64,000 bases of DNA from Pseudomonas sp. Irchel s3h17 (GTDB taxonomy: Bacteria; Pseudomonadota; Gammaproteobacteria; Pseudomonadales; Pseudomonadaceae). Both the position numbers and the translations under genes were made by a program. Positions 10,431-33,674 of this stretch are shown here, one piece after another; positions within the stretch are counted from its first letter, which is position 1, and the number at the start of each line of letters is the position of its first letter. The notes beneath the pieces were generated by a model. It was not told the DNA's origin. It saw only the letters and a list, made by a program, of their open reading frames with translations, and did not search any database. The stretch is taken from assembly GCF_900187505.1 (NCBI RefSeq), contig NZ_FYDL01000001.1, positions 1-64,000 of the forward strand, in the 5' to 3' direction.

Positions 10431-10434
10431 TGAA

Positions 10435-14225: not shown

Positions 14226-14262
14226 GTTCGTGTAGTTAATCTTGTTAATAATGGTGAATGAC

Positions 14263-17834: not shown

Positions 17835-18134
17835 TCAGTAACCGTACTCGTTCAGCAGTTTCTGTAAAAACTCACGTCGCCGTTGGACGATGCTCAAAAT
17901 GAGATAGTCGCGGTCGGTGTCTCTTGTCGACAAATGTCCAGCGTCCACAAGGCCATGGATGTAGCCTTCAGCTCTGCCTCTTGCTTCGAGCAAAGCCTCT
18001 TTGGATGTGCTTTTGTAGATGTCTTCAGCGATGAGCTGCCACCGCTTTTTCTGGCGGTGCCCAATAGGGTCATCGGAAAATTTAGGTGCGTTGATCAGGG
18101 TGGTGAAATCGGAGCGCGCGTCAGGTGCGTTCAA
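17835..18134 (-). CDS. Small protein of unknown function
   Basis: A 99-residue, soluble, charged protein, predicted mostly helical (EDIYKSTSKEALLEARGRAE, IVQRRREFLQKLLNEYGY). No known domain was recognised. It stands alone on the minus strand between the Phd-like remnant and a plus-strand unknown gene. Codon use is even and the frame is well conserved to the end, which supports it modestly as a gene. Confidence 0.5.
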   Translation of the reverse strand: MNAPDARSDFTTLINAPKFSDDPIGHRQKKRWQLIAEDIYKSTSKEALLEARGRAEGYIHGLVDAGHLSTRDTDRDYLILSIVQRRREFLQKLLNEYGY

Positions 18135-18332
18135 AGCGGATTCTCAGAACAGTGATAACTGAGCGGAGGCTATCATGCGCACACTATATCGCCTGCTGTT
18201 GGCTGGCTTTTGTAGGCGCTGGCGCGAAGAAACGATTTCAATGATGGTGCATGCTTTCGGTGGCGTCTTTGAACATTGTGGAGCGTATAGACAGTGCCAT
18301 TCAGCGAGTACATTCTTAGCCCGGAGTTCGAT

Positions 18333-18632
18333 ATGGGATACCTCAGCCTAGAGGACATCTACCCCGATGACGTAGAAAAATATGGCCATCTGCGGGTAGG
18401 AATGACCGACCTCTACGTAAAAGACAATCACGCCATTTATGGTGTGGTTACGCTTGGCGAATACCGCGAGCTGACCAGCAAGTTACTGCGTGACAAAGCG
18501 GTGCAAATGATCATCAGCGCTAAGCTCGCCGCGTTGCCCGAGGACTACGATCCGTGGATTAGGCGGATCGAACGCAATCGCGCCTTACACGCTAGGTATG
18601 GGGACAAATTCGATCCCTGGGGAGACGACTGA
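18333..18632 (+). CDS. Small acidic protein of unknown function
   Basis: A 99-residue protein rich in acidic residues (LSLEDIYPDDVEKYGHLRVG at the start, DKFDPWGDD at the end). The ATG at 18333 is preferred over the GTG at 18294 because GGAG lies 6 bases upstream. It has no recognised domain and no membrane segment. It lies upstream of the exonuclease-like gene but about 150 bp apart, so co-transcription is uncertain. Confidence 0.5.
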   Translation: MGYLSLEDIYPDDVEKYGHLRVGMTDLYVKDNHAIYGVVTLGEYRELTSKLLRDKAVQMIISAKLAALPEDYDPWIRRIERNRALHARYGDKFDPWGDD

Positions 18633-18785
18633 CAGCTCTCCGCGTCCAATCACGAATGCAGCGCCTCATCTTACTCGGCCGACCTTGTAGCTACGCTCCT
18701 CGAAAATCCATCGGTATTGTAAATAGTGGGGCGAACACGGCTACAATGACAGATCACGCTAACAATCGTTGTAAAGGATAGGGCG

Positions 18786-19283
18786 TTGAAGATATTCCTA
18801 GATTGCGAATTTACCCAGCTCAATCAGGACTCGAAACTGATATCCCTAGCGCTGGTATCGGAGTCAGGCGAAGAGTTCTATGTTGAGCTGACTGATACTT
18901 ATTCGGTCGAGGACTGCAGTGATTTCGTCATCCGGAATGTTCTACCGCAGCTCGATCCTCTGCGATATGGGCAGTCGCTTGTCGAAGCCCAAGCGTCTCT
19001 TCGAAGATTTCTAGACGGTTTCGACGAGGAACTTGAGGTGTGTTCAGATGCGCCACAGTGGGATTGGGATTTTTTCTGCGATCTCGCTCGTGCAGATCAT
19101 CAACCCTGGCCAGGCCAGGTTATGAATCAACCTACCAACCTCACGATCCTTTTCCATCAGGTAAATGCAGAAGCTCTTGAACAGGTAGAGCTGTGTGATC
19201 TACCACACCATGCGTTGCTAGACGCACGAGCGCTTGCAGAGCTTTTCAAGCTCTTGGCATCCCGGCTTGTTTTGTCACCATAA
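18786..19283 (+). CDS. 3'-5' exoribonuclease-like protein (DEDDh fold)
   Basis: A 165-residue protein. It begins with KIFLDCEFTQL (the first acidic pair of DEDD exonucleases), has WDWDFFCDL in the middle, and ends with LPHHALLDARALAELF (His and final Asp). This matches the small Rv2179c-like exoribonuclease family, known in phages and mobile elements. It starts with TTG behind AAGGA. RNA trimming is the likely activity; the biological role is unknown. Confidence 0.75.
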   Translation: MKIFLDCEFTQLNQDSKLISLALVSESGEEFYVELTDTYSVEDCSDFVIRNVLPQLDPLRYGQSLVEAQASLRRFLDGFDEELEVCSDAPQWDWDFFCDLARADHQPWPGQVMNQPTNLTILFHQVNAEALEQVELCDLPHHALLDARALAELFKLLASRLVLSP

Positions 19284-19409
19284 GGCGCATCTCAGTTCGA
19301 CAGCTTCTTTTGTATCGTCCGGCATTAATGGCAGATGGCCTAGGAGCCAGCGAATGTGCCAACGATCCGGAATGGGGGGTGCAGGGAGATAATGAGTCAG
19401 CGCTTCACT

Positions 19410-19513
19410 GCAAGTGATTCGAGTTTCGCCATCGACAGAGGGGTGGGGAAAACGGCAAAACAGGATTATTCCAAATTATGGCTCAGCCATAATTATTGCT
19501 GAGCCATAATTTT
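19410..19513. repeat. 105-bp direct repeat, copy A, with AT-rich hairpin
   Basis: About 104 bp are repeated, with few changes, at 43833-43937. Both copies run from GCAAGTGATTCGAGTTTCGC or close to it and end in an inverted repeat. Here the arms AAATTATGGCTCAGC (19473-19487) and GCTGAGCCATAATTT (19498-19512) are perfect. The repeat ends about 98 bp before the MvaU-like start, so it may be a regulatory element. Confidence 0.7.
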
Positions 19514-19610
19514 TGGCTTCTCTGTTTCAGTCTCAGTTGTCGCAAGCAGTCCCTATTGCGATGACCGATTTGCAATATACTGTTAGGCAACTACCGAAAA
19601 GAGAACCGTC

Positions 19611-19976
19611 ATGTCTAAACTCGCAGAATTCCGCCAGCTCGAAAAACACCTCGCCGAACAGCTTCAAGCTCTCGAGGCGCTGAAAGGCGACGCTGGCCTC
19701 AAGAAAGAAATCGAATTTGAAACCAAGCTGCGCGCTCTGCTTGCCGAGTACGGCTACAGCCTGCCGAACGTGATCAACCTGCTTGATCCGAAGTCTGGCC
19801 GTCGCGCACCAGCAGCCGAATCCAAATCCAGCAGCCGTAAGCCACGCCAAGTGAAGATCTACAAAAATCCGAACACAGGTGAAGTCGTCGAAACCAAAGG
19901 TGGCAATCACAAGACGTTGAAAGAGTGGAAGGCTGAACACGGTTCTGCAAAAGTCGAGTCTTGGCTGACCAAGTGA
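19611..19976 (+). CDS. MvaU/MvaT-like H-NS family silencer
   Basis: A 121-residue xenogeneic silencer. Residues 1-60 form the oligomerisation coiled coil (MSKLAEFRQLEKHLAEQLQA, then EFETKLRALLAEYGYSLPNV). Residues 80-120 form the DNA-binding domain with the hallmark VETKGGNHKTLKEWKAEHGS. The MSKLAEF start resembles MvaU more than MvaT. It binds AT-rich DNA in the minor groove and represses acquired genes. It stands alone, with a strong terminator behind it and the repeated hairpin element in front. It is likely an island-borne paralogue rather than the core copy. Confidence 0.9.
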   Translation: MSKLAEFRQLEKHLAEQLQALEALKGDAGLKKEIEFETKLRALLAEYGYSLPNVINLLDPKSGRRAPAAESKSSSRKPRQVKIYKNPNTGEVVETKGGNHKTLKEWKAEHGSAKVESWLTK

Positions 19977-19995
19977 TTTTGGTTTGAGTACAAAC

Positions 19996-20016
19996 AAGGG
20001 CCCTGCGGGGCCCTTT
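19996..20016 (+). terminator. Rho-independent terminator of the MvaU-like gene
   Basis: The stem AAGGGCCC / GGGCCCTT with a TGCG loop and trailing T residues starts 19 bp after the stop codon. Confidence 0.85.
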
Positions 20017-20290
20017 CACTTTGGTAGACGATTCGAGATTTGATACATTGGAATGGTTACGTATAAGACTGATGTTAAACAGACGAGACCGAACAACGCT
20101 GCGAGTAGTTTTGGAAATAGCAAGGCTCCGCTATCGCACTAAGATCGGACGCTCATAGAATTGAAACGTCGACTCAGATACTGTAACATTTGATAGTTCA
20201 TCCATGCCTTACTGATATACCTGATGGTGATTATGAGGCGCTGTGATGCTGACGCCTCGTGCACCCACCTTCAGCTCTCAGCAAGTCTGG

Positions 20291-21379
20291 TTAGACGGCA
20301 ATCACCTTCATCCGTGGTTTAGCCTTGGCTAACGTCAATGCAGCATGCGTCAACGAAGCCTCGGTAGCATCCCACCCCAAACATGCATCAGTCACTGACA
20401 CGCCATATCGCAGGGATTTGCCTAATACCTGACAGCCTTCATAAAGATGGCTCTCAAGCATCATCCCTTTGAGGGAATGCTCTCCGTCCAAGCGCTGCTC
20501 CAGTACGTTTGCAAATACTCCGGGTTGACGAGTATGGCTCTTACCGCTGTTGGAATGACTGCAGTCAACCAAAATCCGCGAGGGAAGGGCGGCTTTATCC
20601 ATGGCTGTCTTAGCGGTAGCAACACTGAAACGATCATAATTCGGGCCTGCTATGCCGCCCCGCAAAACTAGATGAGTATCTGGATTGCCATCGGTTTTAA
20701 TAACCGCCGCGACCCCTTGGCTGTTTACTCCAAAATGGGTATGTTGATGTGCTGCGGCGCGCATAGCATCACATGCAATTGCAACGCCGCCGTCGGTGCC
20801 ATTCTTGAAGCCTACTGGGATGCCTAAACCGCTAACTAACTCTCGATGGACTTGCGATTCGGTAGTTCGAGCCCCAACAGCAGCCCAGCTCATCAGATCA
20901 TCGAAGTATCCGGCTGCTATAGGATGAAGGACTTCATTTGCAATAGGTAAACCCTTGGCCACGATGTCTCGCAACAGTATCCGCGCAATCTCCAGTCCTG
21001 CATGTACATCGTTGCTACCGTTGAGCCAAGGATCATAAGCCAAGCCCTTCCAGCCAACCGTCGTGCGCGGCTTTTCAATATATGTACGCATCACTAAAAA
21101 AATTTCGTCATTTAACGATTGAGCTAAAGCTAAAAGCTTTTCGGCGTATTCAAGTGCAGAGTCTGGATGATGGAGCGAACAGGGCCCCACAATCACTAGT
21201 AGTCTTTCATCTTCACCGTTCAGAATTGCGCGTATTGTATTGCGATTGTCTTGGACTTGGCGCGTAAGCGCATCCGTTATTGGGAGTTTTTGTTTTAGTC
21301 CAAGAGTGCTTGGTAGCTGTAGTTGTGTGTCAGAACATACTGATAACGATGACGGTGACGTGCGTGAATTGGAGTTCAT
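20291..21379 (-). CDS. Class I DAHP synthase
   Basis: A 362-residue 3-deoxy-7-phosphoheptulonate synthase of the AroF/G/H type, the first step of the shikimate pathway (phosphoenolpyruvate plus erythrose-4-phosphate). Motifs: VIVGPCSLHHPDSALEYA, MRTYIEKPRTTVGWKGL, VGFKNGTDG, and RILVDCSHSNSGK. The ATG at 21379 is preferred because it has AGG upstream and matches the family length; an upstream ORF extension to 21436 exists. It is the last gene of the operon with phzD, phzE and the carboxylic acid reductase. An extra DAHP synthase usually serves to raise chorismate supply for a secondary metabolite. Phenazine operons use a class II enzyme (PhzC) in this role, so this cluster differs. Confidence 0.93.
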   Translation of the reverse strand: MNSNSRTSPSSLSVCSDTQLQLPSTLGLKQKLPITDALTRQVQDNRNTIRAILNGEDERLLVIVGPCSLHHPDSALEYAEKLLALAQSLNDEIFLVMRTYIEKPRTTVGWKGLAYDPWLNGSNDVHAGLEIARILLRDIVAKGLPIANEVLHPIAAGYFDDLMSWAAVGARTTESQVHRELVSGLGIPVGFKNGTDGGVAIACDAMRAAAHQHTHFGVNSQGVAAVIKTDGNPDTHLVLRGGIAGPNYDRFSVATAKTAMDKAALPSRILVDCSHSNSGKSHTRQPGVFANVLEQRLDGEHSLKGMMLESHLYEGCQVLGKSLRYGVSVTDACLGWDATEASLTHAALTLAKAKPRMKVIAV

Positions 21380-21533
21380 ATTGGCTACCTGATCATAAGC
21401 AGAAATTCTGCAGCTCCCAATTAGCAGGAGCCGCAACTAAACCATTTCAAGGTTTTGTTTTTCGTCGAAAACAGTGATCGATAAAATCGACCATTTACGA
21501 TTGATTCAAGCGGTTATGTACGTTTCTCTTGGC

Positions 21534-24500
21534 TTATAATTGTAATTGAGGTATGGCAGCAGAAGGGGCGCGATTTAACCCCTTAAGCAACTCTCCCAAC
21601 AGTCCCAGGGATTGCAAGTCCGTTACATATTTTCGAATCAGAGATTTAGATATATGTGGGATTGCAAAGGTCTCTGAACCGGACTCGAATGCGTCAACGG
21701 CTCCTTGAAAACGATCGGAAGGAATGGTTGAGCCACTGATGACCTCTGTTGGTTTGCTAAAACCATGCATGAGCGGTAGTAACGAATGCTGTTTTAGGTG
21801 TTCCGGAAGGCCGCGCAACGCCGTTTCGAATCGATTATGCCAATCAGCATAGTCAAAAACTTTTCTGATGTTGACGCCATGGTCGATCATCCAGTCGACA
21901 AATGTATCCAGCGAAATTCCATCATTATGCGGATTCACCAGATTGAATGACCGATACGAATCCGCGTATTGTCTTACCCCAATTTTCAGTATCGCGGAGG
22001 CAGTGAAGTCGACCGGTAAACCATCGTAATGAGGCAGTCCCCCGTTTCCGGTGGAGCGATAAAATGATGATGGAGCAATGCCTGTGAGTGCGACGCTCAA
22101 AAGAAGGCGAGTAAACATATCGGGGACATTCAACTGTCCAGGATATTGGCTATGCGCCAGAATCATGCTTGAGCGGAATGTGGTGACAGGCAACCCGTAA
22201 TGGTTGTGTGCTTCTCTAAGCAATACCTCACTCGCCCATTTACTGAGTCCATAGCCGGCTGCGTAGGTATCGTCCGCTTCAATTTCGGCGGCTGCAATAC
22301 GGATGTCAGCGTCCTCATCCAAAATGGTTCGGGTGTTCACTAAAGATGCCACGGCAATGCTGGACAAGAATACAACAGGCTTTAGGTGGTGTGAGAGAGC
22401 CAGGCTGATGATCTCCGCTGTACCGGTCACATTGGCGTCAAACAAGTTACTGTACGGAAGGACGTGGTTCACCAGGGCTCCTGCATGGACAATGGTGTCT
22501 ACTTCCTTACCTAGTCTGTCCCAGGTTTCCGGATCCAGTCCAAGCTTGGGTTCTCCAATATCGCCTGCCAGTACCTCAAGGTGTAGAGCGGACAGTGATC
22601 GTAGTTTTCTGAAAACCTGTGAGTTCTCGCTACCGAAGGACTCATGAAGCCGTTTGGTCGCCGACGCCACATTTTTACCTCGCACGACACAGATCAGCTT
22701 GCCTCCCGTTTCACCAAACGCTTCTAGTAACTGCAGGCACAAGAACCTACCTAGATAACCGGTCGAGCCCGTGAGCAGGATTGTTCGAGCTGAATTGGCG
22801 GACGCTTTTAGCCCTCGTGCTTTCTGCAGGACATCTGGGCTAATGAATTTTTCGAGTGAGAGATCCTTTGCGTGGAATACGTTTGGCTTTGCACCATGAA
22901 TTGATGCAGCCGAGGGACGAATCTGGCCCGACTGGAGCGTCTTTTCAATGTAGTCAGAAACGTGCTGCAGATCGTACACGGGGCTAATCAGCATATCGAC
23001 GGGAATGGTGATTCCATAAGCATCAGAAAGTATTGAAGCGAGACTGACCGCGGATAACGAGTCTCCCCCAAGCTCTCTGAACTGTGCATGAGGGCTGATT
23101 TCTTCGGTAGCTCCCCCCACTAAGCTGCGTACCGCTTGTTTTAGCGTTTCGAGTACCGACTGCTGGTTTATCCGTTCGTGAATATCATGGAGCTCATCCA
23201 GCTCTTTGGATACAAGCTGATCGTTTAGCTCCTCAAGCCGCTCAGCATACCTTTCGCGGAGCTTAGGCCACAAAGGTTTGCCGTGATCAGAAAGCAACCC
23301 GTTAGATTGGGTAAAGGGTTCACTTTCGATCAACAAGTCCCGTGGAATTTCATAGCTGCGCAGCTCGGATTTTTTCGCCAGCTTGCGAATGGCATCACCG
23401 AGAAATTGCTTGATCAGTTCTGCTTTACCGTCGAAGCGTTTTGTAAGTTGTTTGGAGGGAACAACAACAGCAAGTAAGTGAGACCATTCGCTTCTTCCAT
23501 ACACGAAGATACTTTGGATCTCTGGTATTGCCGAAAATGTAGTCTCCAATTGAGCCGTCGCGACAAATTCGCCTTGGGACAATTTGATCACATTCTTACG
23601 TCGATCTACATAGACCAGTCGATTATGACCTGTTTCGGCCACAATATCTCCGGTTTTGTAGTATCCATGTTCATCGAAGAGCTCAGTGGCTAACTCCGGT
23701 CGTTTGTAGTAACCAGGGATGATCGACTGCGTTTTCAAAAGCAACTCGCCGCGAGGGAAGGGCGAATCGGTACCGTAATAGCCGAGCTCGGGTACATCGA
23801 TAATTCTATAGTCTTCGACTGGAGGACTGAGTAGCTCATTGTCAATCCAGATTGCACCTGCCTCCGTGGAGCCGTAAACATTGTGAAGCGGAATATTCAG
23901 TAGCTTTTGCGTAAAAATTTTCAGCTCATTGGACAGCGGGGCGGAACTGCAACTGGCCCAGCCAACTTGTCCTCCCAAGACATTTACCCGGATATCCTCC
24001 AAAATCGCCAAGGATGTATCATCGCCGTGGCTAGCTTTTTTTCTGACCAGTTCTGTTTGATATTTTTGATAAATCATCTCGCATATCCGTGGCACCAACG
24101 ATAATTCCGTTGGCTTGCTTAACGAGATGTCTTCGAGCAAGGTGGAAAGATTGCTCTTGGCCGTGAAATAGCAGGTGCCGCCTCTAGCAAGAGTGCTTTT
24201 AAGCGAAGAGTGACCAGCGACGTGGCTCATCGGCATGTAGTGAAATGTAATAGCTCTCTCTTCTGAAAAAATAGTGGCCCACGAGCCGCCCCACATTCCA
24301 GATGCAAGCTTCTGTGTGTACATGGCACCTTTTGGCGTGCCTGTGCTGCCTGATGTATATATCAGCATCGACAGTTCGTCATCCGAGGACAGGCTGTTAT
24401 ACAAGGGGGGCTCAGGTAAGGAGGCCCCTTTTGTAAGCAGATCTTGCAGAGGAACGATTGATACCGCACTGGAATTGCTGTCCAGGTGACTGCGTACGGC

Positions 24501-24995
24501 ATCGAGTTTTTTCGAGTGTTCGGACACCTCTGAATAATAATCCAGTAGCAAGACTCGACGAATAGAAGGGGTTTTCAATGCAACTTCCACAGCGATATCC
24601 AAGTAGTCAATACCTGCCGCGAAGATCAGAGGTTCGGTTTCTTGTAAAATAGAGTCTATTTGAGCTTGGGACGATCCTGTTTGAAGAGGGACGGTTATTG
24701 CACCGAGACGAATGCAAGCTAAATCTAATGTGGCGTAATCGCCGCTCGTGAAGGCCAGAAATGCAACCGAGCTGCCTGCAGTCAGAGGCGCACAGGTGTT
24801 GTGGTGTAGTTCGGCTGCCAACGCACCTGTTCGCTTCCAGAGTTCGCCATAAGTTATCGTGCTGTAACTTGGTAGCAGCTTAAATGACACCTCTTTACTG
24901 TATTCATCAGTAATAAACGTTCTGTCTCGCTCCCCAATAGCAGGGCGATCTGCGTACTTGCTCATCGTGTCAGCGACGATTTTTGCCAAGCTCAT
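21534..24995 (-). CDS. car: Carboxylic acid reductase (A-T-R)
   Basis: An 1153-residue three-domain enzyme. Residues 1-600 are an adenylation domain (LIYTSGSTGTPKGAMY near 211-226; VYGSTEAGAIW; YKTGDIV; VYVDRRKNVIKLSQGEF). A carrier domain carries the phosphopantetheine Ser in LGGDSLSAVSL (near 645). The C-terminal reductase begins with ILLTGSTGYLGRFLCLQLLE (near 735-755, NADPH loop) and has the catalytic YGLSKWASE (near 915). Size, order and motifs match stand-alone CARs of Nocardia and Mycobacterium, which turn acids into aldehydes with ATP and NADPH after activation by a PPTase. No PPTase gene is in the window. The operon suggests trans-DHHA or a derivative as substrate. AAGGA precedes the ATG. 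Confidence 0.92.
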   Translation of the reverse strand: MSLAKIVADTMSKYADRPAIGERDRTFITDEYSKEVSFKLLPSYSTITYGELWKRTGALAAELHHNTCAPLTAGSSVAFLAFTSGDYATLDLACIRLGAITVPLQTGSSQAQIDSILQETEPLIFAAGIDYLDIAVEVALKTPSIRRVLLLDYYSEVSEHSKKLDAVRSHLDSNSSAVSIVPLQDLLTKGASLPEPPLYNSLSSDDELSMLIYTSGSTGTPKGAMYTQKLASGMWGGSWATIFSEERAITFHYMPMSHVAGHSSLKSTLARGGTCYFTAKSNLSTLLEDISLSKPTELSLVPRICEMIYQKYQTELVRKKASHGDDTSLAILEDIRVNVLGGQVGWASCSSAPLSNELKIFTQKLLNIPLHNVYGSTEAGAIWIDNELLSPPVEDYRIIDVPELGYYGTDSPFPRGELLLKTQSIIPGYYKRPELATELFDEHGYYKTGDIVAETGHNRLVYVDRRKNVIKLSQGEFVATAQLETTFSAIPEIQSIFVYGRSEWSHLLAVVVPSKQLTKRFDGKAELIKQFLGDAIRKLAKKSELRSYEIPRDLLIESEPFTQSNGLLSDHGKPLWPKLRERYAERLEELNDQLVSKELDELHDIHERINQQSVLETLKQAVRSLVGGATEEISPHAQFRELGGDSLSAVSLASILSDAYGITIPVDMLISPVYDLQHVSDYIEKTLQSGQIRPSAASIHGAKPNVFHAKDLSLEKFISPDVLQKARGLKASANSARTILLTGSTGYLGRFLCLQLLEAFGETGGKLICVVRGKNVASATKRLHESFGSENSQVFRKLRSLSALHLEVLAGDIGEPKLGLDPETWDRLGKEVDTIVHAGALVNHVLPYSNLFDANVTGTAEIISLALSHHLKPVVFLSSIAVASLVNTRTILDEDADIRIAAAEIEADDTYAAGYGLSKWASEVLLREAHNHYGLPVTTFRSSMILAHSQYPGQLNVPDMFTRLLLSVALTGIAPSSFYRSTGNGGLPHYDGLPVDFTASAILKIGVRQYADSYRSFNLVNPHNDGISLDTFVDWMIDHGVNIRKVFDYADWHNRFETALRGLPEHLKQHSLLPLMHGFSKPTEVISGSTIPSDRFQGAVDAFESGSETFAIPHISKSLIRKYVTDLQSLGLLGELLKGLNRAPSAAIPQLQL

Positions 24996-25060
24996 AATTC
25001 GTTCCTTGATAAAAAATTTGCGGATAGTGCTCAGATAATCGAATAATCCGATCCAGTGAT

Positions 25061-26527
25061 TTATTCGGGAAGTGTCTTGGGTAGCCAGTAGATAGCGAGT
25101 AGTCCTACGGCAAAGGTAAGTAGGCCAGCAACAGCTATTGCGAGGTGCATGCCAGTCAAGAATGCCTGCTGTGCTTGGGCTATCGTTTCGGCGGCGAGAC
25201 CTGACGTATCGAGCGTTTCGTTCAGAGTGCCAGCAATGTCAGGGCCCGATAGGCGAAACCACAGTGCTGCGAGTGAACCGAGTACAGATATACCCAAGGC
25301 GTTGCCGATCTCGTTACTGGTCTCTGCTATAGCGGCTGCAGCACCTGCTCGTTCAGATGGTACTGCTGATACTGCAATCTCGGCGACCAGGCTGAAGGAA
25401 AGGCCGTATCCGACGCCCGCAATTATCGTTGAGGCAACAAAAAATACTGCGCCATAGCTGGTGTCCGTCATAAGTAACAGCAACATCCCACCACTGATCA
25501 GGAAATGCGTGGCTACAAGCGCCCATTTCTTCCCGATTCGTTCAACGATCTTGCTAGTCCAAATACATGTGGCGGTGAGGACGAGTGCTCCAGGCACAGT
25601 GAGCATTGCAGTGGTGAAAACGTCGAACCCGAGTACTGATTGAATGTAGATACCTACGAGATAGCCGGTAGCAGACCAAACTACTAGGGACAATAGTCCG
25701 GTCAAAATCGCAATGGTGAAAATCCGATCTTTGAACAGGCTCACATCAAGCAAAGGGTGCTTAAGATGCCGCTGTCTACTGACAAACCAGAAAAGTCCAA
25801 TAACTCCAATCACGCCAGAGACCAGCTGGCTGGTGGAAATGCCGTACGCAGCTGCCGTTTTGAGTGAGTAGGTGAAGAGCAGGATGCCAATAAACGACAG
25901 AGCGAGACTCGGTACGTCGATTCTGCCTGTCGACTCAGCATGTACCTCGCGTAGTAGATATGGCGCGGAGAGCATGAAAATCAACACCACGGGAACGTTG
26001 ATAAGAAAGACAGACCCCCACGTGAAGTTGTTCAGCAGCATTCCGCCGATCAGTGGCCCGACGGCAAATCCGCCCGCGAAAGTCGCTGCAAAAATCCCAA
26101 TAGCTTGCGCACGCTGCTTAGGGTCAGGAAAAAGATTGCTGACAATTGCCAGGCCAGAAGGCAATAGCGTTGCTCCTCCCAATCCCATAAGTGCTCTGAA
26201 CGCAATTAGGCTCTCAGGGGTTGTCGAGAGTGCAGCTCCAACGGATGCCCCGCCGAAGATCATCGCTCCTACCATCACAAGCTTCAATCTTCCGTATCGG
26301 TCACCGATGTTTCCGAACGCCACCAGAAGTGATCCGACTACGAAACCGTAAATATCCAGAATCCATAGTGCTTGGTCAGCACTAGGCATAAGAGAGGAGG
26401 TGATTCTGGGCATAGCTAAGTACAGAACGGAACCATCCATCGCGACCAGTGCAACCAGTCCCAGTACCGTAAGTAATCCTAGCCATGCTTGCCTATCCGC
26501 AGGCTGAGCGATAGTAGCTTGGTGCAT
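25061..26527 (-). CDS. DHA2-type MFS exporter (EmrB/QacA family)
   Basis: A 488-residue inner-membrane drug:H+ antiporter with 14 predicted helices. Visible marks are the motif A region GNIGDRYGRLKLVMVG between helices 2 and 3, and PLIGGMLL in helix 5. The ATG at 26527 (MHQATIAQP) has AAAGG upstream; a longer ORF runs into phzE and is rejected. It sits between the phzE-like gene and the reductase gene, so it most likely exports the product or protects the producer. Confidence 0.9.
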   Translation of the reverse strand: MHQATIAQPADRQAWLGLLTVLGLVALVAMDGSVLYLAMPRITSSLMPSADQALWILDIYGFVVGSLLVAFGNIGDRYGRLKLVMVGAMIFGGASVGAALSTTPESLIAFRALMGLGGATLLPSGLAIVSNLFPDPKQRAQAIGIFAATFAGGFAVGPLIGGMLLNNFTWGSVFLINVPVVLIFMLSAPYLLREVHAESTGRIDVPSLALSFIGILLFTYSLKTAAAYGISTSQLVSGVIGVIGLFWFVSRQRHLKHPLLDVSLFKDRIFTIAILTGLLSLVVWSATGYLVGIYIQSVLGFDVFTTAMLTVPGALVLTATCIWTSKIVERIGKKWALVATHFLISGGMLLLLMTDTSYGAVFFVASTIIAGVGYGLSFSLVAEIAVSAVPSERAGAAAAIAETSNEIGNALGISVLGSLAALWFRLSGPDIAGTLNETLDTSGLAAETIAQAQQAFLTGMHLAIAVAGLLTFAVGLLAIYWLPKTLPE

Positions 26528-26585
26528 AATAAAATGACCTTTAGTTATGAGTTTGTTTGTGGGGCGAAGTTTTAGTGGGTGCTTC

Positions 26586-28538
26586 TTACTTAAGTAAGTC
26601 GCAAATAGCCGTGCCGAGTATTTTTGCACCGTGTTGGGTCAATACGGATTCCGGATGAAACTGAAAAGATGAGAATAGTGGCCCGCGTAGTGCATGCACT
26701 TCACCGGACTGAATATCATGGCTAACCTCAATCGTTATGCCTTTACTATATTGAAGTTCTGAGCAGTTTGTCATGGCGGCAAAGGTGTTATAGAAGCCAA
26801 CTTTTTCTGCGACTCCAAAAAGATCAATTTCTTTCTGAGTTCCTTGATTTGGGGTTTCTTTGCGCATCAATTCTAGCCCTAAGTGAGAACAAAGCACTTG
26901 GTGGCTTAGACAGACAGCCAAAAAAGGGCGCCGTTGCTCAAGCAACGTTTTAACTGCATTATGCAGGCTGTTAATTCTCGCATCTTTTTGGTCGCAAGGG
27001 TCTCCTGGGCCAGGGCCTAATACAAAGATGTCGTAGCCATTGTAATCTATTGGTTTATTTGCATTTGCTACTGTCACTGACAGACTGAGCGCACTGAGTT
27101 GGTGGCATATCATCGAGGTAAACGTGTCCTCGGCATCCAATACCAAAACTCTAAGACCCTCTAGCTCCTTTTGTGGACGAGCACGGTCTTTCGCAGACGC
27201 TTGCCAAAAACTTGAAATGTGGTCATTACGTTTATTAAGCGCGGCGCTGATGCGAGGATGGGTGACGAGGTCTTTATATCGATTTTCAGGAGACGGTTCA
27301 CCGGGCTTGGAATTAAGAGTCCCGGCTGTTGTATCCAAAACGCCAAGAGCTGAAAGCAGACCTGAAGCTTTTGCTCGGGTTTCGGCAGCTTCTGAAGTCG
27401 GGTTCGAGTTTCTTACCAGTGTGGATCCGGTAGAAATTCTGATCGTTCCGTACTTATTTATATCTGCAGTGCGGATCAGGATCGATGAATCAACGTAGTG
27501 CTGACCGCTTCGTTCGCGGCCTAACAGCGCAACGATTCCGCTGTAATAGGCGCGGCCCTCAGGCTCATATTTTTTGATGACTCGGCAGGCGTTTTCGAGT
27601 GGGCTTCCTGTGATAGTTGGAGCAAACAACGTCTCGCGCAGAATTTCCCAAGGTTCCGATTGGGTTTCCCCTTTTATGAGATATTCCGTGTGTGCCAGAC
27701 GAGTCATTGCCTTCAGATAGGGGCCTTCGATAGTGCCTCCTAGGGTACAGACATTGCCCATCATCTTGAGCTCTTCATCCACGACCATATACAGTTCTTC
27801 GGTCTCCTTGCTGTCAGATAGGAAATCCAGAACTCCTTCGACGCTCGGCCCTGATGCCGGATATCGATAGGTACCACTGATGGGATTCATGGTGGCCACG
27901 TTCTGCTCCATGCTGACGTGCCGCTCTGGCGTCGCACCGACGAAGACTCTGTCACCGGTGTGGATGATGAAAATCCAATATGCTCCAATCTCCTGTTGCA
28001 ACAGCCGGCGAAAGAGTGTCAACGCTTTGCGATGACTGAAATCATCAATGGATGCGAGGAATGAGCGTTTCAATACGAAATTCGAACCTGCCCCCATGCC
28101 AATTTCATCTTTGATGATCTTTAAAGCAGTCTCGGCGTAGGCGTCATCGTCGATGTCGTAATGTTCACCGCTTATTGTGATACCCGTATCAGGGATTTGC
28201 TCCAGGACTTCGCGTTTTGAGAGGGTCGTTGCTGCATCAATGGTCAGTGCGATCAGCGGTTCTTTATCATCAACGCATTCGAAGCCCCGTTCAGTTATCT
28301 GGCGGTAAGGAATGATCGCCAATACGTCATGTCCGCCTATTGTTGACGCTCGTGGACGATAGCACCTGGATAGATCAGCGAGTTTTTCTAAGTGCTCAAC
28401 TGTACCTGTCAGAATCTCTACGGAGTCGCCGTTCGCGGACTCTGGCCGATAAATCAGCGCATACGCAGGAGGCGACATGGAAAGAACGCTATTGAGCAGC
28501 TCGTCTTTATTGTCGGGCGCGTTCAGAGGAGTGGTCAT
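26586..28538 (-). CDS. phzE: PhzE-like 2-amino-2-deoxyisochorismate (ADIC) synthase
   Basis: A 650-residue two-domain enzyme. The N-terminal part is an anthranilate-synthase-like chorismate-binding domain ([50 protein letters not shown]-like [17 protein letters not shown]). The C-terminal part is a class I glutamine amidotransferase with Cys in FLAVCLSHQ and His/Glu in [10 protein letters not shown]. The residues around the active site follow PhzE rather than TrpE, so chorismate is converted to ADIC. The stop of phzD overlaps its ATG by 4 bp. It is the second gene of the operon. Confidence 0.93.
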
Positions 28539-29158
28539 ATAAAAACATCCTCAGTCGTGCAAACAACGGCGCAACGTTGTGCCGCATACTCGAGGGCAAG
28601 GCGATGATGTTTTTCCGAAAAGTCTGCGACGGCGTCTGCAACTAGAAACGTCTGAATGTCGTTGGTGAATGCTTCGACTGCGGTGAACAGTACCCCAACA
28701 TGGGCGTAGACCCCGCAAATTACGAGTTGGTCACGACCTGCTTCACGCATGCGCTCGAGTAGGCCTGAGCGAAAGAAGGCGCTGTAACGCCATTTGGTAG
28801 AGATCCAGTCGTTGGGTGCAGGTGCTAGCTCCTCAACGATTTTTCGATCTTCCGGATCAACCTTCATTCCTGGGCCCCAAAAGTCCTTCAGCAAACCCCG
28901 TTGCTCTGGACTCATCCCACCTGGTTGGGCCGAGTACGCAATAGGTACACCCAATCTCCTGCCGCGCTCGCACAGTAATGAGATGTTTTGAACAAGGTGA
29001 GTACGATGTTGCCCATCGAACGGCTGAACGAAGTACCGCTGCATGTCATGAATGAGCAAAACAGCGCGGTTGGGGTCAATATCCCACTGGGCGATGTTTG
29101 GGGGAAGGTCGAATGAGGTGGGCATTTCGTACGGTGAAATGGAAGGTATGCCGGTCAT
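28535..29158 (-). CDS. phzD: PhzD-like isochorismatase
   Basis: A 207-residue hydrolase, the same length as PhzD of P. aeruginosa. It removes pyruvate from ADIC to give trans-2,3-dihydro-3-hydroxyanthranilate (DHHA). PhzD landmarks are HDMQRYF (catalytic Asp), TKWRYSAF (catalytic Lys) and ICGVYAHVG, where the nucleophilic Cys of other family members is replaced. The chosen ATG (29158) has AAGGAG 6 bp upstream. It is the first gene of the operon and overlaps phzE. Confidence 0.94.
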
Positions 29159-29261
29159 GATTCTCTCCTTGAAAACCAACAAATGAATGCAACCTCTGCG
29201 AGGACAGTGCCCGCTAACGGACTACGGTACACATGGCGGATAGTCCATGCGCTTGCGTCAA

Positions 29262-29289
29262 ATAATCCTGTCACTGCGCGACAGATTAT
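29262..29289. promoter_or_regulatory. Candidate TetR operator upstream of phzD
   Basis: A near-perfect palindrome has arms ATAATCCTGTC and GACAGATTAT around a 7-bp core, about 105 bp before the phzD start. On the minus strand a TTGACA box (29292-29297) lies right next to it. This is the expected layout of a TetR-repressed promoter. The link to the TetR gene at 29857 is inferred. Confidence 0.45.
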
Positions 29290-29297
29290 GTCAACTG

Positions 29298-29856
29298 ACA
29301 AAATTCGCAAGGTGATAACATTCAGCTTGCGACTAAAATTAAGTGTATTGTTTTCAATCGCTTAGAGATTTTTGTACCAAAATGATTCCGATTAAAAGTA
29401 AAAGCAGGCTCTCCATCCATTGATCGCAGCTGGTCTGGATAACCACCCCTGCAAAGGAGTCGTGTCCGCCGTCGAGATTTAGTTCGTTATCACGTAGTTT
29501 CGGCTCTCGGTGCGTGCGGGGGGTAATATTGGCGCTTGGCGCCATAGAAACTCGGGCAGTCGTGCCAAGGTCATCTAACATTGAGCTCAGCACAGCGTCA
29601 CACTGACAGCCCTTGTTTAGGGGGGATGAACGCCCGGTTGTCATAATGACCAGAATAGGCTCTGCTGAAATCTCATCGCCATCTCTCAACGTTCACAGTG
29701 CAGAGGCCAAATCAGCAATTATTCAGTCGATGACATTTGTCTTGATGTGTTATTTATCTCATTGAGAAAATAGTCTGGCTGTGTTAAAAGCTTTAGTCGC
29801 TAAGCTGGCAGCGAGACGAAGGCGAGCAATAGAAATTAATCGGCAAGAGGTACATT
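29298..29856. other. Intergenic region between the phz-like operon and its TetR gene
   Basis: About 560 bp without a gene that can be supported. A minus-strand frame (29354-29689) is open but has no ribosome site, no recognisable domain and biased composition. The AT-rich stretch at 29320-29380 and that at 29740-29780 may hold promoters for the divergent genes. Confidence 0.5.
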
Positions 29857-30489
29857 GTGAAGGCACCTGAGGATCTCGGCCGCAGAGAGCGGAAGAAATT
29901 GATGTTACGTGAGGCTCTGATCGAGTCAGCGTACAATTTGTTCGAAGAAAAGGGATTTGACGAGACTAGAATCGAAGATATTACGGATAAAGTTGATGTC
30001 TCTTCGCGTACTTTTTTCCGATATTTCTCATCAAAAGAAGACGTAGTACTTGATTATCAAGAAGTCGAGCATGATGAAGTCATCGCAGCCTTGAGTGCGA
30101 GACCTGCGGGCGAGCCCATATTGACGGCTTTGCGTCACGCAGTTGTCGAGGTAGTCAATGGTTGTGAGTTGGGTTCTTATGGGCTGGACTCCGATAGATT
30201 TAAAATTCTAAAGCACCTGATTCGCGGCCATCCATTGGTTTGCGCCAGGAATTTAGAACGTACACAAATCCGGCAAGCTTCGCTGGTTTCAGTAATTGCA
30301 AGTAAGATGGGCGTCGATCCTGCTGAGGATATTCGTCCGGGTGTCGTCGCGGGAGTGTTAGAGTTTGCGTATAGCGCAGCTTATGATGTTTGGAAGGATC
30401 TTGAAGCACGCTCCGTCCTCTATTCGGATGTACTTGATGATATATTCGTGCTAATCGAAGATGGGCTGAATTTTAGCTGTCAGGGCTAG
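29857..30489 (+). CDS. TetR-family regulator next to the phz-like operon
   Basis: A 210-residue regulator. The N-terminal helix-turn-helix is clear: RREALIESAYNLFEEKGFDE-type start (LREALIESAYNLFEEKGFDE), ITDKVDVSSRTFFRYFSSKE. The C-terminal ligand-binding half is typical but unassigned. It starts with GTG behind AGAGG. It diverges from the phzD operon, so it is the likely local regulator; the ligand may be a pathway product. Confidence 0.88.
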   Translation: MKAPEDLGRRERKKLMLREALIESAYNLFEEKGFDETRIEDITDKVDVSSRTFFRYFSSKEDVVLDYQEVEHDEVIAALSARPAGEPILTALRHAVVEVVNGCELGSYGLDSDRFKILKHLIRGHPLVCARNLERTQIRQASLVSVIASKMGVDPAEDIRPGVVAGVLEFAYSAAYDVWKDLEARSVLYSDVLDDIFVLIEDGLNFSCQG

Positions 30490-31146
30490 TACGAGTCTTG
30501 CTGTTAGTCTTGTGCGTGAGTAATTATCAATTGAGGAGCTATTTTAAATACTTGTGAGCTTAACAATCGCTCGTCGTAACCTACAGGAACTACAAGTAGT
30601 TGTCTTAACCTTCCAGCTATAGCGCATTTTTATATGGTTTTGAGGCTTTTTGGTCTAGGGAAGTGCTCGTGTAGTACACGTCAGTAACGCTGCGCTTCCT
30701 TATTTATCTATGTTTTGCACTTTTCTTGAGAGGTAAAGTATAACTTTGTGGGTGGTGTGTTGCTGGCTTGTTAAGCTTTAAATGTATCGACTGCTTTTGT
30801 TGTCATGCTGACTTAAGGCGCCGATCAATTAAATTTCTGGCGCGCTTTCTGGGTGAGTTGTGCATGCATAAACTTAACAAGGGCTGTTTTTGTTATTGTC
30901 AGATTCTCAATAATACCTTTGCTTGAAAGATATGCTCACGCGTCCATCTTGTTGGTGGGTGAGTGACATTTGTTCACCACGGACGCATAACTGAATGCCG
31001 GTTTAGTTGCAGGGGTGGGGCATTTCTCGAGACCATTTGTTTTTTCGTTGACCATTAATTACATTGATACTGAACGTCATTTTCATCAAGCCTTGGCCAA
31101 TGTCGGTCGAAGATGAGACCAACAGATGACGTCGACACACGATATT
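30490..31146. other. AT-rich intergenic region
   Basis: About 650 bp of AT-rich DNA between the TetR gene and the oxidoreductase gene. No open frame with coding character, no RNA gene and no clear repeat was seen. Its low GC makes it a likely target for the MvaT/MvaU-type silencers in the window. Confidence 0.5.
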
Positions 31147-31779
31147 TCAAACCATGGAAAAAAAACTTTCTCCCTTGCACATACACTCCCCGGATGCAGT
31201 GAACAGATTACGACCGAGAGTTCGTGCTGCTTCTAGGTGAAAGATTGGATCTCGGTTTTCCGACTCGAGCATCAGTTCAGATGTAACGACGCATGCACCG
31301 CAGTAATCGAAGATCCCGTGCTCAATCTGCGTCCTCATTGCATCAGCATATCCGTGTCGAGCGTAGGTTCCCTCATCGGCACCTCCGACAGCCACTAGAT
31401 GAACCCGCAGGTGACGAAGTTTTTTCACAAGAGTGGTTTCCGGATTGAAGTCGAACGCCCAGCCATTAGTGAACACCCGATCAATCCACCCCTTGAGAAG
31501 TGCCGGCATTGACCACCAGTAAATGGGGTAGACCAGAACAAGTGCATCGGCACGATCAATCCTCGTCTGTTCGGCAGTAACATCTGCGGGAGGCGGCGCT
31601 TCCCTATGATGAACTGCGAGGTCATTCGTGGTGAACCTTGGATCGAAAGCCTGCGCCGAGAGGTCGGCAATTTCGAATGAGTTATTGGGGTCGCTGGATA
31701 CGCCTTTAGCGACCTGCTTAGCGAGACTATGGGTGAGTGACCGGGAATCATGGTGAGCAATCACGATGAGTGCGTGCAT
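31147..31779 (-). CDS. NAD(P)H-dependent oxidoreductase (flavodoxin-like)
   Basis: A 210-residue flavodoxin-fold protein of the NQO1/MdaB/KefF group. It starts with ALIVIAHHDSRSLTHSLAK (phosphate-binding loop for FMN/FAD), continues with DALVLVYPIYWWSMPALLKG (flavin-contact motif) and VAVGGADEGTYARHGY. Such enzymes reduce quinones and other electrophiles by two electrons. It diverges from a TetR regulator, a common pair for redox or drug stress response. Confidence 0.88.
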   Translation of the reverse strand: MHALIVIAHHDSRSLTHSLAKQVAKGVSSDPNNSFEIADLSAQAFDPRFTTNDLAVHHREAPPPADVTAEQTRIDRADALVLVYPIYWWSMPALLKGWIDRVFTNGWAFDFNPETTLVKKLRHLRVHLVAVGGADEGTYARHGYADAMRTQIEHGIFDYCGACVVTSELMLESENRDPIFHLEAARTLGRNLFTASGECMCKGESFFSMV

Positions 31780-31821
31780 GGCGAGAACTCCTGCTAGTGA
31801 TTGAGAAGGAATGGCACAAAC

Positions 31822-31870
31822 TATATACTTTTGGTAGGTTTCTATCTGTAAGTTACTTTTGGTATATAGC
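31822..31870. promoter_or_regulatory. Operator-like repeats in the oxidoreductase/TetR promoter
   Basis: The decamer ACTTTTGGTA occurs twice, once near each end of the region, and CTATATAC ... GTATATAG forms an inverted pair at the outer ends. The second site ends at the TetR start codon. This layout fits autoregulation by the TetR protein at 31872 and control of the divergent oxidoreductase. Confidence 0.5.
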
Positions 31871-31871
31871 T

Positions 31872-32513
31872 ATGTCAAGCACTGAAACAGGCGATAAGGA
31901 CTTCAATCTAGAACCGCGTCGCCGTCTGTCGAGGGAGAATAGGCAGCGTCAGTTACTGGATATCGCCTGGCGGCTCGTTCGGAACGAGGGGACGGAAGCC
32001 CTGACACTCGGAAGACTCGCTGAACTCGCGGGCGTCACAAAACCCGTGGTTTATGACCATTTCATCAGCCGATCTGGTTTGCTCGCGGCGCTCTATCGGG
32101 AGTTCGACGCACGTCAAAGCGAACTCATGGACGCTGCTCTTCAGACCAGTGAGCCGACTTTGTTGAGTGCGGCCAAGGTCATTGCATCGTCTTATGTCGA
32201 CTGTGTGATGCTCCAGGGTACCGAGATACCCGGCGTGATTGCGGCGTTGGCCAGTTCACCGGAGCTCGGGATGATCAAGCGCAAGTATGAAGAGGTTTTT
32301 CTGAACAAATGTCGGATGGTCTTTCTCCCCTTTGCTGGAAAGGGTGATATCTCATCGGCGAGCCTGCGAGCGATGCTTGGCGCGGCCGAGGCGTTGTCCC
32401 ATGCCGCTACCAATGGAGAAATTACCCCCAAGCAGGCCATGGACGAGCTTTTGGAAATAATCATCGCGATGGTCGAAAGAAGTTCACGCCATGGATCCCC
32501 AAGCGCCATATAG
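31872..32513 (+). CDS. TetR-family regulator of the oxidoreductase gene
   Basis: A 213-residue regulator. The HTH is visible at residues 20-65 (LLDIAWRLVRNEGTEALTLG, LAELAGVTKPVVYDHFISRS). The C-terminal part is helical with the family's usual length. The ATG at 31872 follows the operator-like repeats directly; an upstream TTG/ATG extension to 31770 runs through the promoter and is not used. It likely represses itself and the divergent oxidoreductase. Confidence 0.88.
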   Translation: MSSTETGDKDFNLEPRRRLSRENRQRQLLDIAWRLVRNEGTEALTLGRLAELAGVTKPVVYDHFISRSGLLAALYREFDARQSELMDAALQTSEPTLLSAAKVIASSYVDCVMLQGTEIPGVIAALASSPELGMIKRKYEEVFLNKCRMVFLPFAGKGDISSASLRAMLGAAEALSHAATNGEITPKQAMDELLEIIIAMVERSSRHGSPSAI

Positions 32514-32583
32514 GCAGACAGTTGCCGGCTACCGTATCTGTCCCCCCTACACTATTGTGACACCGCGCAGAGGCGATCTTGCA

Positions 32584-32730
32584 TCACAAAGCACCACGAA
32601 CGTTGCTGGCGACCTCCGCTGATCCGCGCTGCTCGACCCAAAGGGTAAGCTCCATAATCGCGGCTTCGAGGGCTAGCTGGTTCTGATTGATCTTGAAGAG
32701 CAGGGAAGGGAGCAGGTCTGCGTTCGACAT
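32584..32730 (-). pseudogene. Truncated copy of the small gene at 48336-48545
   Basis: The first 48 codons match the 69-residue protein encoded at 48336-48545 almost residue for residue (MSNADLLPSLLFKINQNQLA at the start). The frame then ends at a stop after VRGAL, where the other copy continues. The upstream sequence, including the ribosome site region, is also duplicated. It may still be translated but lacks the C-terminal third. Confidence 0.6.
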
Positions 32731-32771
32731 TGTGATTCCTCCGTGGAAGAGGTCAGCGTAGCAGGCGGGTG

Positions 32772-33674
32772 CTACTCTCGTTCAAGCTGCCTGGCATCGG
32801 AGGTTACGGCTTCCATGATAGACATCAGCTCCTCAAGCAACTCCGCATAGTAGCGAGTGAGATAGCCGGCAATGGCATCGTTGCGAAGGATACGTACGAG
32901 ATAACCCTTGGCCACAACCAAGACCAGCATGGTCTCACCCAGTGTGTCCTCAACCTGTTTGTAATCATGCTGAAGGTTCTCCATCTCCCGCTCCATGCGG
33001 GCTATGTCAACGGCACTGACGTCACTTGGTTTTTTCTTCTTCTCAACCAGCATCTCCGGTCGCGACGCCGTCAAGACCATTCGTGCATAATTTCTCGTAA
33101 AGCAGTTGGCTGAGATCATCATTTCAACTGTTTCAATCTGGCGGATGGGCTTCATCAGTCGAAGGGCTCGGAACACGTCCTGCGATACCATGCGAACCTT
33201 CAGCATCTCCGCGACCTCAGGCGCTATGCCTTTCAGCAGATTTTCTCTTTCGTGAACCCTATCCACATTGATCCCAAGCACCGCCGCAATGCGAGAGGCT
33301 TCAATACCTTTTTTTAGAGCGGAGATGATCATTTTATGTTCTTGGATTGGTGTCAGTCGGTTGATTTGCCGGTTGTAGGTAAAGCCCTCATCGTCGGTGG
33401 ATATCAGGCATAGCGCCTCGGTTGCCCCCAAAGCCTTGAGTGCTTCTAAACGAAAATGCCCATCCAAAAGCATGAACGAAGTGACTCCATCAGCGACGAC
33501 AGACTTGGGGTGTACCACCAATGGCTCAACGACTCCGAGTTCTCTTATTGAACTCAAAATGCTGGCGTACTTTTTACTTCCGGGTGTCAGTTGTTCGACC
33601 TTACGCGAGGGTAGGATTCGCTCTAGGGGAATCGCAATGACACGCTGCTCGAATGCCTGCTTGACCTCTATCAT
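32772..33674 (-). CDS. ParB/RepB-type partition-like protein
   Basis: A 300-residue protein with an N-terminal ParB/Srx-like domain (RKVEQLTPGSKKYASILSSI, VVEPLVVHPKS, FMLLDGHFRLEALKALGATE), a middle helix-turn-helix region (RLTPIQEHKMIISALKKGIE, SRIAAVLGINVDRV) and a plasmid RepB-like C-terminal region. Members are found on plasmids and integrative elements and bind DNA. No ParA partner is next to it. It supports a mobile-element origin of the region. Confidence 0.85.
   Translation of the reverse strand: MIEVKQAFEQRVIAIPLERILPSRKVEQLTPGSKKYASILSSIRELGVVEPLVVHPKSVVADGVTSFMLLDGHFRLEALKALGATEALCLISTDDEGFTYNRQINRLTPIQEHKMIISALKKGIEASRIAAVLGINVDRVHERENLLKGIAPEVAEMLKVRMVSQDVFRALRLMKPIRQIETVEMMISANCFTRNYARMVLTASRPEMLVEKKKKPSDVSAVDIARMEREMENLQHDYKQVEDTLGETMLVLVVAKGYLVRILRNDAIAGYLTRYYAELLEELMSIMEAVTSDARQLERE

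What the first reader, a model, noticed from the sequence alone, without database searches (positions are those of the whole stretch)
20291..30489. A phenazine-type entry pathway joined to a carboxylic acid reductase
One operon encodes PhzD-like and PhzE-like enzymes, an extra DAHP synthase, a DHA2 exporter and a full A-T-R carboxylic acid reductase, with a divergent TetR. PhzE and PhzD should give trans-2,3-dihydro-3-hydroxyanthranilate (DHHA). phzF, phzA/B and phzG are absent, so phenazines are not expected. A CAR would activate an acid and release an aldehyde. The nearest known logic is tilivalline biosynthesis in Klebsiella (aroX, adsX, icmX, mfsX), but that uses a DHB dehydrogenase and NRPS modules not seen here. 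I know of no characterised product for this exact gene set.
Basis: partly seen in the sequence, partly recalled or inferred. Interest (0 to 1): 0.88.

Follow-up and report, generated by a model that had tools for sequence, protein, structure and literature searches.

The report
Phenazine-entry pathway ending in aldehyde maker
A rare gene cluster in a bacterium that is likely a Pseudomonas carries the two entry enzymes of the phenazine antibiotic pathway but, in place of the later phenazine genes, a carboxylic acid reductase and an exporter, so it is predicted to make and export a small reactive amino-aldehyde for which no description was found, and Streptomyces genomes carry related gene sets.

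Summary
Window 20291-30489 encodes PhzD-, PhzE-, MFS-, CAR- and class I DAHP-synthase genes on one strand with a divergent TetR, and no phzA/B/F/G. The unit is larger: a second genome of the genus (G141) keeps the same eight genes in order, adding a flavodoxin-fold NAD(P)H oxidoreductase and a second TetR (to 32513). CAR is rare in the genus (2 of 298 and 2 of 398 genomes). Both CAR genomes are among the 11 of 296 with PhzE; the other nine carry phenazine operons. Three Streptomyces loci hold CAR within 8 kb of PhzD/PhzE, two with a related exporter, a DAHP synthase and a class IV aminotransferase. CARs tied to PhzE share an adenylation-domain motif (HSSLK): 24 of 24, against 1 of 18 CARs without PhzD/PhzE nearby, though 19 of the 24 ties rest on contig lengths. 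Best reading: chorismate to ADIC to DHHA, then CAR reduction to an amino-hydroxy-cyclohexadiene carbaldehyde (or its aromatised product), exported by the MFS. The DHHA dehydrogenase of tilivalline and limazepine clusters is not in the locus. CAR substrate and product are inferred. Seven targeted searches of an open-access library found no described cluster.

The parts
20291..21379 (-). class I (AroF/G/H-type) DAHP synthase; ORF runs to 21436 (TTG), likely ATG at 21379
   Evidence: PF00793 E 8.5e-75; TIGR00034 434.7 bits over cut-off; 6agl E 5.8e-107; 76% identical in G141
21534..24995 (-). carboxylic acid reductase, A-T-R, 1153 aa; carrier serine S646; motif residues H262-S263-S264-K266, W346-A-S348
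   Evidence: NF041592 1485.2 bits (cut-off 1300); AMP-binding, PP-binding, NAD_binding_4; solved CARs matched over full length; S646, Y915, K919, D959 invariant among 120 aligned CARs; motif
25061..26527 (-). DHA2-like MFS exporter; ORF runs to 26629, likely ATG at 26527
   Evidence: PF07690 E 4.5e-48; 88% identical in G141; 63-66% to the MFS of two Streptomyces CAR regions
26586..28538 (-). PhzE-type ADIC synthase (chorismate-binding + glutamine amidotransferase)
   Evidence: PDB 3r74 PhzE E 1.6e-198
28535..29158 (-). PhzD-type isochorismatase (ADIC to DHHA), likely ATG at 29158; the aspartate at PhzD position 38 and the TKWRYSAFF lysine are kept (catalytic roles recalled)
   Evidence: PDB 1nf9 E 5.2e-91, 3r77 E 6.4e-91, alignments; start read
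29183..29856 (.). divergent promoter region; palindromes TGTCAACTGACA (29289-29300) and TCTCATTGAGA (29757-29767) conserved in G141, candidate TetR operators
   Evidence: operator role inferred
29857..30489 (+). TetR-family regulator 1 (MftR-like C-terminal domain)
   Evidence: PF00440, PF17754; 87% identical in G141
31147..31779 (-). flavodoxin-fold NAD(P)H oxidoreductase (KefF / quinone-reductase like), conserved member of the locus
   Evidence: PF02525 E 4.4e-42; PRK09739-like, under its cut-off; 66% in G141, same position and strand
31770..32513 (+). TetR-family regulator 2
   Evidence: PF00440; 68% in G141, same position and strand

Best explanation
This locus encodes PhzE- and PhzD-type enzymes next to a carboxylic acid reductase, which likely reduces the dihydro-hydroxyanthranilic acid (DHHA) that those enzymes are predicted to make to a small amino-aldehyde that the co-encoded MFS pump would export. 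Inferred steps: DAHP synthase raises shikimate flux; PhzE aminates chorismate to 2-amino-2-deoxyisochorismate (ADIC); PhzD removes pyruvate to give DHHA. No PhzF, PhzA/B or PhzG gene is in the window to make a phenazine, and no DHHA dehydrogenase or NRPS gene was seen in the locus to make 3-hydroxyanthranilate products. The CAR then adenylates the carboxylate (ATP), moves it to the phosphopantetheine arm on S646 and reduces it with NADPH, releasing 6-amino-5-hydroxycyclohexa-1,3-diene-1-carbaldehyde. That aldehyde may be the product, or may lose water to 2-aminobenzaldehyde (or ammonia to 3-hydroxybenzaldehyde). TetR1 would control the operon through palindromes in the shared promoter; the flavodoxin-fold reductase with TetR2 is a conserved partner whose role (redox adjustment or self-protection) is open.
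For: Gene identities. Same eight genes in the same order in G141, 66-88% identical, and blastn of window 17001-36000 against 19.5 kb of G141 matched only inside the unit. Full-length CAR in 2 of 298 and 2 of 398 genus genomes (overlapping samples); PhzE at E 1e-120 in 11 of 296; both CAR genomes are among the 11 (chance about 0.0013 if independent). The other nine have phzA, B, C, F and G matches beside PhzE, 9 of 9; window, the G141 stretch and the Streptomyces CAR regions have no phzA/B/F/G match; PHZA_PHZB absent from both CAR genomes, present in two controls. Of 20 regions around actinobacterial CARs, 3 (all Streptomyces) have PhzD and PhzE within about 8 kb; two of these have the exporter at 63-66%, class II DAHP synthase and class IV aminotransferase, one also chorismate synthase and shikimate kinase. 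19 of 119 listed CAR relatives share a contig length with a listed PhzE relative. HSSLK motif: 24 of 24 PhzE-tied CARs against 1 of 18 others; linked/unlinked needs 3 changes on the CAR tree when unknowns are left out. A CAR of a neighbouring branch (L149) lies near fused PabA/PabB-type and DAHP synthase genes, which suggests another chorismate-derived aminobenzoate pathway.
Against: No substrate or product was tested. For 19 of the 24 PhzE-tied CARs the tie is an equal contig length, not seen adjacency; ten of those contigs exceed 180 kb. Those 19 come from the list of closest relatives of the window CAR, while the 18 untied ones come from a looser search, so kinship and motif are confounded; with unknown-context rows counted, the 'tied' label is no more clustered on the tree than shuffles (22 changes against 22.6), and the motif itself needs 6 changes. 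In 17 of 20 fetched CAR regions there is no PhzD match and no PhzE match above 27% identity. PhzE-like matches are common in Streptomyces (184 of 199 genomes at E 1e-150), so PhzE alone is not specific. HSSLK occurs in 65 of 100 CARs of unknown context, 19 of them without W346 or S348, so it marks a wider CAR group. CAR activity on non-aromatic DHHA is not known to me. The Streptomyces loci carry extra genes, so their end product may differ, and not all their genes were annotated.
Confidence: 0.6

Rival explanations
1. The CAR acts after aromatisation: DHHA is oxidised or dehydrates to 3-hydroxyanthranilate or anthranilate first, and the CAR makes 2-amino-3-hydroxybenzaldehyde or 2-aminobenzaldehyde.
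For: A dehydrogenase is proposed to oxidise DHHA to 3-hydroxyanthranilate in tilivalline and limazepine pathways; known CARs take aromatic acids (recalled); a dehydrogenase could be encoded elsewhere in the genome (not searched).
Against: No dehydrogenase gene was seen among the annotated ORFs of the eight-gene unit, whereas the tilivalline and limazepine clusters carry one.
Confidence: 0.22
2. The CAR reduces an unrelated acid (fatty, phenylpropanoid or amino acid) and its aldehyde condenses with the amine of DHHA or is independent of it.
For: CARs are generally broad in substrate (recalled); in 17 of 20 actinobacterial regions CAR has no PhzD match and no PhzE match above 27% nearby.
Against: Co-occurrence in the genus, linkage in three Streptomyces regions, and an adenylation motif unlike the two solved CARs aligned.
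Confidence: 0.13
3. The locus is a partial or decaying phenazine operon with a CAR nearby by chance.
For: phzF, phzA/B and phzG are missing.
Against: The genes are open frames and the unit is kept in order in G141; its PhzE branches apart from those of nine phenazine operons; its DAHP synthase is class I, not the class II of those operons.
Confidence: 0.03

Closest known systems
Tilivalline/tilimycin cluster of Klebsiella oxytoca (aroX, adsX, icmX, dhbX, NRPS)
   Same: DAHP synthase, ADIC synthase and isochorismatase proposed to lead to DHHA (PMC5698749, passages read)
   Different: There DHHA is proposed to be oxidised by DhbX and built into a benzodiazepine by NRPS; here no dehydrogenase or NRPS was seen in the locus, and a free-standing CAR is present
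Limazepine chorismate/DHHA pathway (Lim3-Lim6)
   Same: Lim6 and Lim5 shown in vitro to turn chorismate into DHHA (PMC5958127, passages read)
   Different: A putative oxidoreductase, Lim4, follows; no CAR in the passages read
Phenazine operon phzABCDEFG
   Same: PhzE and PhzD homologues, dedicated DAHP synthase
   Different: phzA/B, phzF, phzG absent from the window; DAHP synthase is class I rather than class II
Solved carboxylic acid reductases (PDB 5msc, 5msp; organism names SrCAR and MmCAR recalled)
   Same: A-T-R architecture over full length
   Different: Motifs differ: MSHVAGHSSLK and LHNVYGSTEA here against [ML]SH[IV]AGR and [HV]DGYGSTEAG in the two aligned

Membership tests
Phenazine biosynthesis operon | PhzE and PhzD homologues | tested here: met
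Phenazine biosynthesis operon | phzF, phzA/B and phzG | tested here: not met
   no tblastn match in the window or L108; 9 of 9 control operons match; PHZA_PHZB absent genome-wide with positive controls; phzF and phzG not searched genome-wide
Chorismate/DHHA pathway to 3-hydroxyanthranilate (tilivalline, limazepine) | DAHP synthase, ADIC synthase, PhzD-type isochorismatase | tested here: met
   by sequence:
Chorismate/DHHA pathway to 3-hydroxyanthranilate (tilivalline, limazepine) | DHHA (2,3-dihydro-2,3-dihydroxybenzoate-type) dehydrogenase in the cluster | tested here: not met
   none among the ORFs of 20291-33677 given to Pfam and NCBIfam; elsewhere in the genome not searched
Carboxylic acid reductase | A-T-R domains, carrier serine, curated score | tested here: met
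   NF041592 over cut-off; domains; S646 invariant
Carboxylic acid reductase | ATP/NADPH-dependent reduction of an acid to an aldehyde | not testable with these tools
   needs purified enzyme

The most novel reading that the evidence does not exclude
A third fate of DHHA, beside phenazines and 3-hydroxyanthranilate products: a dedicated CAR subfamily, marked by a shared adenylation motif, reduces non-aromatic DHHA itself, giving a new family of secreted amino-hydroxy-cyclohexadiene carbaldehydes in Pseudomonas and, further tailored by amination or methylation, in Streptomyces.
Probability: 0.45. Interest if true: 0.82.

Novelty: new variant of a known kind. Interest (0 to 1): 0.66.

Why it matters
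DHHA is a branch point for phenazines, pyrrolobenzodiazepines and benzoxazoles (PMC5958127, passages). A CAR acting on it would open a further branch that makes free reactive aldehydes without an NRPS, in five biosynthetic and transport genes small enough to move and test whole. It would also add a CAR group with a predicted natural substrate; native substrates of most CARs are unknown (recalled).

Tried and rejected
Phylum-wide CAR at E 1e-250: only the window itself in 398 genomes. (PHZA_PHZB in the own genome) was inconclusive alone because its built-in controls were silent; one search supplied controls. Literature: of nine searches, seven looked for the cluster or its product and two for benzastatin; most hits were seen as listings only, and passages were read in four papers. 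A structure prediction of the CAR was not finished at any of 12 polls, so no pocket model was used. I considered a decaying phenazine operon and rejected it. The ORF at 29354-29689 has no match in G141 and was dropped.

Weak points of my own tests: contig-length pairing was typed by hand from the listings (119 CAR rows, four of them without a length, and 119 PhzE rows). Some 'unknown' rows are near-copies of rows whose context was seen (for example P0129 and L145, P0186 and L146). The Fisher value treats related rows as independent and is not used as proof. That the motif positions line the acid pocket, as in 4-coumarate:CoA ligase, is recalled, not tested. Two of the 21 Streptomyces CAR places (L142, L144) were not fetched with wide flanks.

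Full report
What is there. The window lies in a 5.5 Mb genome of 45 contigs; that it is a Pseudomonas is inferred from named relatives (Pseudomonas sp. 43NM1, CAR 90%; a PhzD relative named Pseudomonas sp. QS1027 on a contig of the same length as that of G141), not from a label. On the minus strand run PhzD (28535-29158), PhzE (26586-28538), an MFS exporter (25061-26527), a 1153-residue CAR (21534-24995) and a class I DAHP synthase (20291-21379), with a TetR gene divergent at 29857-30489. phzD and phzE overlap by four bases and the gaps MFS-CAR and CAR-DAHP synthase are 65 and 97 bases by the ORF ends, consistent with one operon. PhzD and PhzE match the solved phenazine enzymes better than any other listed enzyme (307 against 197 bits; 664 against 74 bits). 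The CAR scores over its curated cut-off and aligns with solved CARs from end to end.

The unit is bigger than reported. One other genome of the sampled genus, G141, has the same genes in the same order and orientation: DAHP synthase 76%, CAR 78%, MFS 88%, PhzE 76%, PhzD 88%, TetR 87%, plus a flavodoxin-fold NAD(P)H oxidoreductase 66% and a second TetR 68%, which in the window lie at 31147-31779 and 31770-32513. Blastn of window 17001-36000 against 19.5 kb of G141 found similarity only inside this unit. Two palindromes in the shared promoter, TGTCAACTGACA and TCTCATTGAGA, are kept between the two; that they are TetR operators is inference. The unit is 49% G+C against 54% for the window, and Tn7/Tni-type transposition genes and an IS21 ATPase gene lie about 4-12 kb away, which fits a mobile cargo, though this was not tested.

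Not a phenazine operon. In 296 genomes of the genus, 11 have a PhzE at E 1e-120 or better. Two are the window genome and G141; the other nine were fetched, and tblastn finds phzA, phzB, class II phzC, phzF and phzG matches in all nine (Pfam identities were checked in one of the nine, L181). None of phzA/B/F/G matches the window or the G141 stretch, and PHZA_PHZB is absent from both genomes while two control genomes ring. In a FastTree tree of 140 PhzE rows the nine phenazine-operon PhzEs form one supported group apart from the window's group; support is local SH-like only and several long branches meet.

CAR and PhzE go together. Full-length CAR occurs in 2 of 298 genomes in one sample and 2 of 398 in a larger, overlapping one of the same genus, and those two are among the 11 with PhzE. 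Across the phylum sample only the window genome has it at E 1e-250 (1 of 398). In Streptomyces, 19 of 199 genomes have a full CAR, 21 matches in all. I fetched 19 of those 21 places (not L142 and L144) and one Nocardia place found, 20 regions in all. Three, all Streptomyces, have PhzD/PhzE within about 8 kb of CAR; 17 do not, one of which (L149) gives a 27% match to the PhzE query. Two (G491, G383) read: CAR, class IV aminotransferase, TetR, then divergently the MFS exporter (63-66% to the window's), a transposase, class II DAHP synthase, PhzD and PhzE, and in G383 also chorismate synthase and shikimate kinase (in G491 PhzD was seen only as a 96-residue match at a region edge). The third (G334) has PhzD, PhzE, another MFS, MarR, a methyltransferase and CAR. 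The DAHP synthases belong to different classes in the two groups, so the pairing of a dedicated DAHP synthase with PhzD, PhzE and CAR was perhaps assembled more than once; this is inference. PhzE-like matches at E 1e-150 occur in 184 of 199 Streptomyces genomes, so PhzE alone says little there.

Hint from the protein library. Among the listed relatives, 19 of 119 CARs share a contig length with one of 119 PhzEs, nine of them on contigs of 8.8 to 45 kb and ten on contigs over 180 kb; matching organism names appear for several of the longer ones. Adjacency was not seen for these. PhzD gave two more pairs. Pseudomonas fragi may hold a relative: a PhzD of 77% is named so, and a CAR (67%) and a PhzE (65%) have similar member counts.

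A motif in the CAR. Aligning 142 CAR rows, all 24 tied to PhzE have HSSLK after the MSHVAG stretch, W[AV]S before the SAP stretch and LH[NI]xYGSTEA; of 18 CAR rows whose fetched regions showed no PhzD/PhzE neighbour (L149's 27% match aside), 17 lack HSSLK and one has it, L148, which lies beside a class II DAHP synthase. Two solved CARs read [ML]SH[IV]AGR and lack HSSLK. Against a tight reading: of 100 rows of unknown context 65 have HSSLK, 19 of these without W346 or S348; the tied rows were drawn from the closest relatives of the window CAR; on the tree the motif needs 6 changes, tied against untied needs 3 when unknowns are left out, and the tied label among all rows is no more clustered than shuffles. 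So the motif marks a wider group that includes the PhzE-tied CARs. By homology these columns fall at positions that line the acid pocket in 4-coumarate:CoA ligase (recalled). A CAR of a neighbouring branch, L149, lies near fused glutamine amidotransferase/anthranilate-synthase-type, class II DAHP synthase, P450 and carbamoyltransferase genes, a set that recalls benzastatin biosynthesis (recalled), in which BezE acts on a geranylated p-acetoxyaminobenzoic acid (PMC11843346, passages read). CARs near this one may thus serve chorismate-derived aminobenzoate-type acids.

Mechanism. Lim6 and Lim5, homologues of PhzE and PhzD, turn chorismate into DHHA in vitro (PMC5958127, passages read), so that part rests on established chemistry. 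In tilivalline and limazepine clusters a dehydrogenase is proposed to take DHHA to 3-hydroxyanthranilate; none was seen in the unit here. The simplest use of the CAR is direct reduction of DHHA. Its product, an amino-hydroxy-cyclohexadiene carbaldehyde, could be exported as such or lose water or ammonia. Which of these happens, and what the flavodoxin-fold reductase does, cannot be decided from sequence.

What is known. Seven full-text searches of an open-access library aimed at this cluster or its product listed no paper that I recognised as joining PhzD/PhzE to a CAR; most hits were seen as listings only. Papers behind subscription are mostly not in that library, so a description may exist there. 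I file it as a new variant of the chorismate/DHHA pathway kind: it looks like those pathways up to DHHA, but fails the membership tests for phenazine (no phzF, phzA/B, phzG in the window) and for 3-hydroxyanthranilate pathways (no dehydrogenase seen in the cluster).

Noticed in passing
window 8333-16428: Tn7/Tni-like transposition genes (PDDEXK_7 protein, TnsB-like, TniB, TniQ) followed by an IS21 istB; may have carried the cluster or neighbouring cargo.
   Followed up: partly
window 50755-52779: DUF4011 protein matching PADLOC candidate defence model PDC-S37 and Hhe.
   Followed up: no
window 5946-8342: 798-aa protein without a Pfam match but with a PADLOC candidate defence match (PDC-M26A), next to the PDDEXK_7 gene.
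   Followed up: no
window 36061-37257: 398-aa ORF with a RES domain in its C-terminal half.
   Followed up: no
L149 (G350), 398-13215: A CAR with a variant motif in a cluster with fused PabA/PabB-type enzyme, class II DAHP synthase, P450, carbamoyltransferase and GMC oxidoreductase; recalls a benzastatin/virantmycin-type set.
   Followed up: partly
protein rows P0197, P0199 (Pantoea), P0211, P0214-P0216, P0219 and the P0144 group: CARs with HSSLK but WAG instead of WAS, context unknown; possibly another chorismate-derived acid.
   Followed up: no
L163 (G304, Nocardia), 6843-13799: Two full-length CAR genes in tandem.
   Followed up: no
L148 (G318), 8166-13325: CAR with the HSSLK motif beside a class II DAHP synthase; the PhzE-like genes listed for that genome lie hundreds of kb away.
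   Followed up: partly
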